From an uncultured Bacteriovoracaceae bacterium (lineage in GTDB: Bacteria > Bdellovibrionota > Bacteriovoracia > Bacteriovoracales > Bacteriovoracaceae), in assembly GCA_950054155.1 (NCBI GenBank), contig CATLOT010000032.1, positions 1-39,870 of the forward strand: a stretch of DNA of 39,870 nt, written 5' to 3'. Below, in pieces: positions 2,156 to 12,442 of this stretch (positions are counted from its first letter, which is position 1; the number at the start of each line of letters is the position of its first letter). The translations under genes were made by a program, and so were the position numbers. The notes below the pieces were generated by a model. It searched no databases. It had not been told where the DNA came from and saw only the letters and a list, made by a program, of their open reading frames with translations.

Positions 2156-2291
2156 AAATCCTCCTTAAAATGAAATAGTCTGGGATAATGATCAGTTTTG
2201 ATTTGTTCTTTGTAAATAAAATCCCAATAAAAACACCTCTTTTTTACAAACCAACGAGAAGGAAACCTAGGGGTTGTGAGATGAAGTGGGC

Positions 2292-2703
2292 ATGAAAAAA
2301 AACCGTCACAACCCTCCTCATTCTCATCATTTCCTCAATCTGGGCGGCCGCACAGGCGAATACTTTATTTAGTTGCTATGTGCCAATCAATCCCTATGAT
2401 TCTTCCTTTTCTCAGGGTGATGAACTCTTTTTAGACATTGAAATCGACGAGAATAAAACCATTGAACTTGCCATCAGTGCTATGGGTGGACCGACCTTCA
2501 CTTTGCCCACCCTAGGAAAGAGTGAGGCTAATGCGACGTCTTCAACATTTTCAGGTTCCTTTGAAAATGGCTATCTCAGCATGGTCTACTTAGGCGGGAA
2601 AACATGGGGCGCCTTTGTCAGTCAAAAAAGTTTCGATGAGCTAGAATCAGAGCTTGAGTTCATGTGCCGCGAAAAAGAGCTCAATACCTTCTTTCCTCTC
2701 TAA
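2292..2703 (+). CDS. Secreted hypothetical protein with a frameshifted signal peptide
   Basis: The downstream frame is open from a GTG at 2380 (107 residues), but its upstream extension encodes a textbook signal peptide (KKTVTTLLILIISSIWAAA, then QANTLF). That extension has no start codon in frame: it begins at a TGA overlapping an ATG at 2292. The ATG is followed by eight A residues (2295-2302). With seven, the ATG would read straight through signal peptide and mature protein, giving about 136 residues. So there is an apparent +1 insertion in a homopolymer: a sequencing error, an inactivating mutation or a slippage-prone site. The mature part is acidic with one cysteine near each end. No family recognised. 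It lies 40 bases before the FecR/barrel gene and is probably in its operon. Confidence 0.6.
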
Positions 2704-2743
2704 AGAATTGCTTTAAAGACCAAAATTATTCACAATAGAATAT

Positions 2744-10768: not shown

Positions 10769-12442
10769 ATGAATGGTGCAATTATCGCTCTTATTGGCCT
10801 TTGTGCTTTTGCTCTAGCGTATCGCTTCTACGCGGGCTTTCTTAGCCAAAAGATTTTTAATTTAGAAGAGCTCGACCGCCAGGCCATTAAAACTCCCGCT
10901 CATGAATTCAAAGACGGTATAGACTTCGTTCCCACCTCCAAAAATATTCTCCTCGGCCACCACTTTAGCTCTATCGCCGGAGCAGCCCCTATAGTAGGTC
11001 CTGCCGTGGCGGCTATCTGGGGTTGGGTGCCTGCCTTTTTATGGATCATCTTCGGTGTCATTTTCATGGGGGCCTGTCATGACTTTGGGGCCCTGGTGAT
11101 ATCGATGCACCACCGTGGAAGCTCAATGGCCATGGTTGCCCAAGATCTCTTAGGTCCAAGAGTGCGCAACCTTTTGCTTCTCGTGATCTTCTTTCTTGTT
11201 TGGATGGTGATAGCCGTCTTTGCTCTCGTCATCGCAAACCTCTTTGTGAGTTACCCCTCAGCAGTGCTTCCCGTAAACTTTGAAATTATTGTCGCCCTTA
11301 TAATGGGGCTCTTCTTTAATAAGGCAGGGCGAAGCCTTAAGCTGCCAAGTATCCTCGCCCAAATCACCCTCTTTATCATGATCTATCTCGGAACCCTCTT
11401 TCCGATCAGCCTCAATCCCCTCTTCGGCCAAAATGCTTTAATGGCGTGGATGATCTTTCTTCTCATCTATAGTTTCTTTGCTTCCGTCATGCCGGTGTGG
11501 CTTCTTTTACAACCAAGAGACTATATTAACGGCCACCAACTCTTTGTCGGCCTTTTTCTTATGATCGGTGGGCTCTTCATTGTCAGACCCGAAGTTGTGG
11601 CCCCTGCTCTCAACCCTAACCCAGAAGGAGCGCCCCCACTCTTTCCCTTCCTCTATATCACTATCGCCTGTGGTGCTATTAGTGGATTCCATGGTCTCGT
11701 CAGCGGTGGCACCAGTTCAAAACAAGTGTCCTCCTGGCAAGAGGCAAAACCCGTAGCCTATGGGGCTATGCTTGGAGAGGGCTTGCTTGCCCTCTTGGCC
11801 ACCCTTGCTGTCACGGCAGGCTTTGATTCACCTGGTGCCTGGCACTCTCACTACGCCAATTGGAATCAAGCGAACGGTCTTGCCGCCAAAATAAATGCCT
11901 TTGTGAACGGTTCTGCTCAATTCATTAATGGCTGGGGAATAAGTGTTGAAATAGGTCAAACGATAATGGCCGTTCTCATTATTAGTTTCGCAGCAACGAG
12001 CCTTGATACAGCTTGTCGGATTCAGCGTTACATCATCGCAGAAGTGGGAGAAGGATTAAATATCCCAACCCTTAAAAATAAGTATATCTCTAGCTTTATT
12101 GCCGTCATCAGTGCTTTTTTCTTAATGATTTCAAGTGAAGGGGGAAAAGGTGGTCTTATTATCTGGCCTCTCTTTGGTGCAACAAATCAGATGCTCGCAG
12201 TCCTCACCCTTCTTCTGATTTGTGCGTTCTTGATCAAAAAGAAACGCTCGGCAAAGAACTTTCTCATTCCCACTCTTTTTCTCATGGTCATCACCATTGG
12301 TGGCCTCTTTCTGAATATCAAACTCTTTTACCAAAGTGACAATCTCCCCCTCATGGGTCTTGCAATCCTCCTCTTACTCGCCCAAATCTGGACAACAATT
12401 GAAGCTTTCCTCTTTATCAAAAAGGCCAATTCTCATGCCTAA
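10769..12442 (+). CDS. cstA: Carbon starvation protein A family transporter (pyruvate/peptide)
   Basis: A polytopic inner-membrane protein of 557 residues. It shows the family hallmarks FVPTSKNILLGHHFSSIAGAAPIVGPAVAAIWGW (near 52-86), ACHDFGALVISMHHRG, and late GLVSGGTSSKQ and FAATSLDTACRIQRYI segments. CstA and its relatives (BtsT) import pyruvate and possibly peptides by proton symport. At 557 residues it belongs to the short form, lacking the C-terminal extension of the roughly 700-residue E. coli proteins. A strong AAGGAGG precedes the ATG. It heads a tight four-gene run; its stop lies eight bases inside dacB. No cognate two-component system is adjacent. Confidence 0.93.
   Translation: MNGAIIALIGLCAFALAYRFYAGFLSQKIFNLEELDRQAIKTPAHEFKDGIDFVPTSKNILLGHHFSSIAGAAPIVGPAVAAIWGWVPAFLWIIFGVIFMGACHDFGALVISMHHRGSSMAMVAQDLLGPRVRNLLLLVIFFLVWMVIAVFALVIANLFVSYPSAVLPVNFEIIVALIMGLFFNKAGRSLKLPSILAQITLFIMIYLGTLFPISLNPLFGQNALMAWMIFLLIYSFFASVMPVWLLLQPRDYINGHQLFVGLFLMIGGLFIVRPEVVAPALNPNPEGAPPLFPFLYITIACGAISGFHGLVSGGTSSKQVSSWQEAKPVAYGAMLGEGLLALLATLAVTAGFDSPGAWHSHYANWNQANGLAAKINAFVNGSAQFINGWGISVEIGQTIMAVLIISFAATSLDTACRIQRYIIAEVGEGLNIPTLKNKYISSFIAVISAFFLMISSEGGKGGLIIWPLFGATNQMLAVLTLLLICAFLIKKKRSAKNFLIPTLFLMVITIGGLFLNIKLFYQSDNLPLMGLAILLLLAQIWTTIEAFLFIKKANSHA

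What the first reader, a model, noticed from the sequence alone, without database searches (positions are those of the whole stretch)
2292..2703. Signal peptide knocked out of frame at an A8 tract
ATG is followed by eight A. With seven, it would open straight into a perfect signal peptide and the 107-residue downstream frame. As given, the ATG frame ends after 26 codons. Homopolymer slippage could make expression phase-variable or heterogeneous, or it may be a read error.
Basis: seen in the sequence. Interest (0 to 1): 0.5.

Follow-up and report, generated by a model that had tools for sequence, protein, structure and literature searches.

The report
Small secreted-protein gene with frameshifted start
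A small gene for an exported protein of unknown function has its start codon put out of frame by a run of eight A's; this is most likely an ordinary recent mutation or a sequence error, not a special switch.

Summary
ATG 2292 is followed by eight A (2295-2302); its frame ends after 26 residues. It is a real gene: relatives lie in 4 of 6 other genomes of the genus (36-44% identity), each with a start codon just before the signal peptide. The window copy keeps 27 of 29 positions identical in those four; one of the two losses is the start Met. So only the start is broken; the rest has not decayed. Little supports a programmed switch: no relative has an A run longer than four there, 20 sampled stretches (400 kb) held no G/C run of 8 or more, and adding one A gives the wrong frame. 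Best reading: a one-base homopolymer indel, either a recent real mutation or a consensus error. Without reads or sister strains these cannot be separated.

The parts
2281..2295 (+). Four-codon ORF ATG-AAG-TGG-GCA-TGA (MKWA*), in frame with the signal-peptide frame; its TGA overlaps the ATG at 2292
   Evidence: Sequence; best ribosome-binding-site pairing of the candidate starts, -5.9 kcal/mol, matched or beaten by 25% of 190 sampled genes
2292..2372 (+). ATG frame as given: 26 residues, then stop; out of frame with the gene
2295..2302 (+). A8 tract directly after the ATG
2296..2361 (+). Signal-peptide-like stretch (K-K, hydrophobic core, A-Q-A) in the gene's frame, without a usable start codon
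   Evidence: judged by eye; aligns with the N-termini of four relatives
2362..2703 (+). Rest of the exported-protein frame (two conserved Cys; predicted mainly beta), with its stop codon
2744..4768 (+). Next gene: FecR-domain protein of 674 aa, 40 bases downstream; no terminator-like site between

Best explanation
A single-copy gene for a small exported protein, limited to one genus of the Bacteriovoracaceae or a close group, carries a one-base length change in the A tract right behind its start codon. In the DNA as given, translation from ATG 2292 yields a 26-residue out-of-frame peptide, and from ATG 2281 a four-residue one, so no exported protein is made. The change is either a recent real slipped-strand mutation (or a minor allele caught in the assembly) or an error of the consensus; it is not a programmed switch. 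Shown: the frame break, the homology, the undecayed downstream frame. Inferred: that the change is recent or false, and that expression is lost.
For: Frame break read directly. Relatives in 4 of 6 other genus genomes, each with an open start and signal peptide. The window copy keeps 27 of 29 columns identical in the other four; the losses are the start Met and one Pro, so the frame was under selection until very recently or still is. The only other start, GTG 2380, would drop the first of two conserved Cys (C27) and the signal peptide, and has almost no ribosome-binding site (+1.0 kcal/mol). Such breaks are rare in this genome: a scan of 439,870 bases (window plus 20 stretches; 1,392 tract-by-strand cases of runs of 6 or more) flagged 6 possible start breaks and 5 possible mid-gene breaks; of the 10 outside the window 7 were looked at, and none was a clear break.
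Against: No reads, sister strain or second assembly of the same species was on hand, so the true tract length and any mixture are untested. The rarity of other breaks argues somewhat against a generally error-prone assembly, and an A9 or longer run inside open ORFs is resolved in frame elsewhere, which weakens the pure-error reading. A slippage-rescued gene would look the same in DNA.
Confidence: 0.75

Rival explanations
1. Contingency switch: slipped-strand changes of the A tract turn the exported protein on and off between cells.
For: The tract lies at the one place where a length change kills or restores the whole protein; the protein is predicted to be exported, as many phase-variable products are (general knowledge); the rest of the frame is undecayed.
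Against: No relative has an A run longer than four at the site. A8 is short, and runs of 8 or more are common inside open ORFs here (26 of 46 in 400 kb). No G or C run of 8 or more in those 400 kb. A literature search for Bacteriovorax with phase variation found 0 papers.
Confidence: 0.08
2. Transcriptional (or ribosomal) slippage on A8 rescues part of the mRNA, so the exported protein is made at a low level from a gene that is broken in DNA.
For: Known in bacteria: A11 in Citrobacter tssM1 (PMC4256274, abstract and outline seen), A9 in Thermus dnaX, and A8 in a human gene (PMC1088944, passages seen). The frame is undecayed.
Against: The change needed here is minus one or plus two A; plus one gives the wrong frame. 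In E. coli and Buchnera, insertions, 80% of them single bases, prevail in A/T runs, while deletions in such runs were rare in E. coli; in Buchnera 16 of 57 deletions were in runs and rose with length (PMC5574713). The tract is not conserved in relatives.
Confidence: 0.07
3. The true start is ATG 2281 and the lesion is the TGA at 2293-2295 (a substitution, a read error or a leaky stop), not the A tract.
For: ATG 2281 is in frame with the gene and has the stronger ribosome-binding site (-5.9 against -2.7 kcal/mol).
Against: Three of the four relatives start right at M-K/R-T and the fourth at M-N-L-K-T, matching a start at 2292; one relative's own start has an equally weak site (-2.4) and another none (+0.4). 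Length changes in homopolymers arise far more often than a given substitution (general knowledge).
Confidence: 0.1

Closest known systems
Frameshifted genes and fresh pseudogenes at A/T homopolymers (for example lineage-specific decay of Campylobacter capC/capD autotransporter genes, PMC7168839, passages seen)
   Same: An exported-protein gene inactivated by a small frame change while the rest stays readable.
   Different: There many strains show it; here one genome, so a true allele and a consensus error cannot be told apart.
Transcriptional slippage genes (Thermus dnaX, Citrobacter tssM1, IS elements; PMC1088944 and PMC4256274)
   Same: Frame change at a run of A in the sense strand.
   Different: Runs of 9-11 A used by plus-one or mixed slippage, within or late in genes; here A8 directly at the start codon, needing minus one or plus two, and not conserved.
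Phase-variable surface genes with homopolymer tracts (Campylobacter, Helicobacter and others; general knowledge and listing)
   Same: Homopolymer at the 5' end of a gene for an exported protein.
   Different: Those tracts are usually longer, often G/C, and seen to vary; none of that was shown here.

Membership tests
The genus-restricted small exported protein family described here | C-x-x-P-x-N-x-x-D ... F-x-Q-G ... L-S-M-V-Y-x-G ... W-G ... E-x-E ... C-x-E, N-terminal signal peptide | tested here: met
   27 of 27 columns invariant over all five rows by definition; 27 of 29 columns invariant in the other four kept by the window copy
The genus-restricted small exported protein family described here | Start codon in frame with the signal peptide | tested here: not met
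   Present in the four relatives, missing in the window copy
Phase-variable (contingency) gene | Tract length differs between cells or strains of one species | not testable with these tools
   One genome per species held; no reads
Phase-variable (contingency) gene | Tract kept at the same place in relatives | tested here: not met
   Longest A run at the start in four relatives is four
Transcriptional slippage gene | Transcripts of mixed tract length and both products made | not testable with these tools
   No RNA data
Transcriptional slippage gene | Long conserved A/T run whose common slip product restores the frame | tested here: not met
   A8, not conserved; plus one A gives the wrong frame
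Any named protein family (Pfam, NCBIfam, solved structures) | Profile or sequence match | tested here: not met
   0 Pfam and 0 NCBIfam families for the window protein; over five members only single weak matches, E 0.11-0.19; 0 solved sequences up to E 1

The most novel reading that the evidence does not exclude
The A tract directly behind the start codon is an on/off contingency switch for an exported protein in a bacterium from a group known for predatory members, caught here in its off state.
Probability: 0.08. Interest if true: 0.45.

Novelty: new member of a known kind. Interest (0 to 1): 0.12.

Why it matters
As it stands, little: it is one frame-broken start in one genome. It matters for annotation, because an automatic call from GTG 2380 would give a cytoplasmic 107-aa protein lacking the signal peptide and a conserved Cys, hiding a family of exported proteins seen so far only in this genus. 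If the tract proved to switch, it would be a case of homopolymer phase variation in a group where the one search made found no paper holding both terms.

Tried and rejected
Programmed ribosomal frameshift of minus one on A-AAA-AAC: rejected, because minus one from ATG 2292 does not lead into the gene's frame (frame arithmetic). Start at GTG 2380: rejected, because it loses signal peptide and a conserved Cys and has almost no ribosome-binding site. A generally frame-broken assembly: not supported, though three of the ten flagged places outside the window were not looked at and one of the seven looked at (L034) stayed unclear. Function by fold: the model is of middling quality (mean pLDDT 71.6, pTM 0.63, five rows), eight strands; Foldseek against solved structures gave no match at E 0.001 or better, best 0.016, many lipocalin-like barrels at TM 0.42 or less among the 50 rows shown: a hint of a small beta-barrel, no more. 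Relatives in viral contigs: none confirmed of 118 pattern matches. Similar DNA in plasmids: no match. Window tRNAs: none.

My first run of the tract survey read an alignment row instead of the window; it therefore covers the 20 stretches only. The later scan includes the window. The paper search gave one paper, not read; that gave seven, of which one was looked into.

Full report
What is there. The window is a whole contig (C32, 39,870 bases) of a 3.52 Mb genome in 61 contigs, 99.91% complete. At 2292 an ATG is followed by eight A (2295-2302); its frame gives 26 residues. The frame one base along, open from 2296 to the TAA at 2701-2703, reads K-K-T, a hydrophobic stretch, A-Q-A, then a 114-residue remainder. 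An ATG at 2281 is in frame with this frame but runs into the TGA at 2293-2295 after four codons; that TGA overlaps the ATG at 2292.

Is it a gene. Yes. The translated frame, with no base changed, finds relatives in 4 of 58 other genomes searched, all in the same genus: 4 of 6 other members and, in a wider search, 0 of 122 genomes of the family outside the genus. The two genus members without a match are 88% and 100% complete. Identity to the window copy is 43, 44, 36 and 42%. No Pfam, NCBIfam or solved-structure sequence match of weight was found.

State of the gene. In all four relatives the ORF opens with a start codon just before the signal peptide: ATG in three, TTG in one as picked by the ORF tool. 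None has an A run longer than four there. Of the columns identical in the other four, the window copy keeps 27 of 29, missing the start Met and one Pro; the same count for the relatives is 27 of 30, 27 of 28, 27 of 39 and 27 of 28. So the window copy shows no decay beyond its start.

Which start. Ribosome-binding-site pairing is -5.9 kcal/mol for ATG 2281, -2.7 for ATG 2292, +1.0 for GTG 2380; 25%, 63% and 96% of 190 sampled genes do as well or better (starts of those genes are the first ATG/GTG/TTG and so rough). The relatives' starts score -2.4, -5.0, -6.4 and +0.4, so a weak site does not rule out ATG 2292. In three relatives the start overlaps the end of an upstream ORF, by 26, 4 and 32 bases, and in the window ATG 2292 overlaps the TGA of the four-codon ORF; translational coupling is a possible reading, untested.

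Surroundings. The gene sits between a divergent 177-aa gene and a FecR-domain gene. In G005 the same two neighbours (47% and 66% identity) flank a 506-aa ORF instead, which by its sequence looks like an FAD-dependent oxidoreductase (judged by eye). In G001 and G004 the FecR gene follows a permease-like ORF of 734 or 746 aa. So in 3 of 3 genomes with a close FecR relative (51-66%) another gene precedes it, and the small gene lies elsewhere (G001) or was not found (G004, G005). The slot is variable.

Error, mutation or switch. Runs of 8 or more A or T are frequent (46 in 400 kb) and 26 of 46 lie inside open ORFs, including runs of nine and one of ten. A scan for frame breaks at runs of 6 or more over 439,870 bases flagged 11 places, the window one included. 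Of the ten others seven were looked at: three are ordinary gene ends or starts, three look non-coding by eye, one stayed unclear. This argues that the break here is exceptional, but cannot tell a single consensus error from a single real mutation. A switch is not supported: the tract is short and not conserved, and there is no sign of long tracts elsewhere in the sample. Rescue by transcription slippage would need minus one or plus two A, whereas insertions, mostly of one base, prevail at A/T runs in E. coli and Buchnera (PMC5574713, passages and one section); Buchnera does show some deletions in runs. Against my reading, slippage at A8 is on record in a human gene (PMC1088944, passages).

Verdict. 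An ordinary homopolymer indel at the start of an otherwise sound gene of a small, so far unnamed family of exported proteins. Odds: recent real mutation or minor allele, or consensus error, together 0.75, not separable here.

Noticed in passing
window 2156-2743; L055 1687-3363: The slot between the 177-aa gene and the FecR gene holds different genes in different species of the genus: the small exported-protein gene here, a 506-aa oxidoreductase-like ORF in G005.
   Followed up: partly
L004 1877-1902, L006 1895-1926: In two relatives the start and first residues of the family member lie inside the end of an upstream 101-aa ORF in another frame, so a signal peptide overlaps a coding end.
   Followed up: partly
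L007 1501-1512 (G000 C3): A second gene of this genome, a 245-aa SDR-like ORF, starts with ATG and eight A but in frame.
   Followed up: partly
L034 about 17986, minus strand: A long open frame resembling a substrate-binding protein without a clear start codon near its signal-peptide-like stretch; flagged by the scan and not settled.
   Followed up: no
window 12336-12442: Two long ORFs on the same strand (557 and 529 aa) overlap by 107 bases as listed; the second probably starts further down.
   Followed up: no
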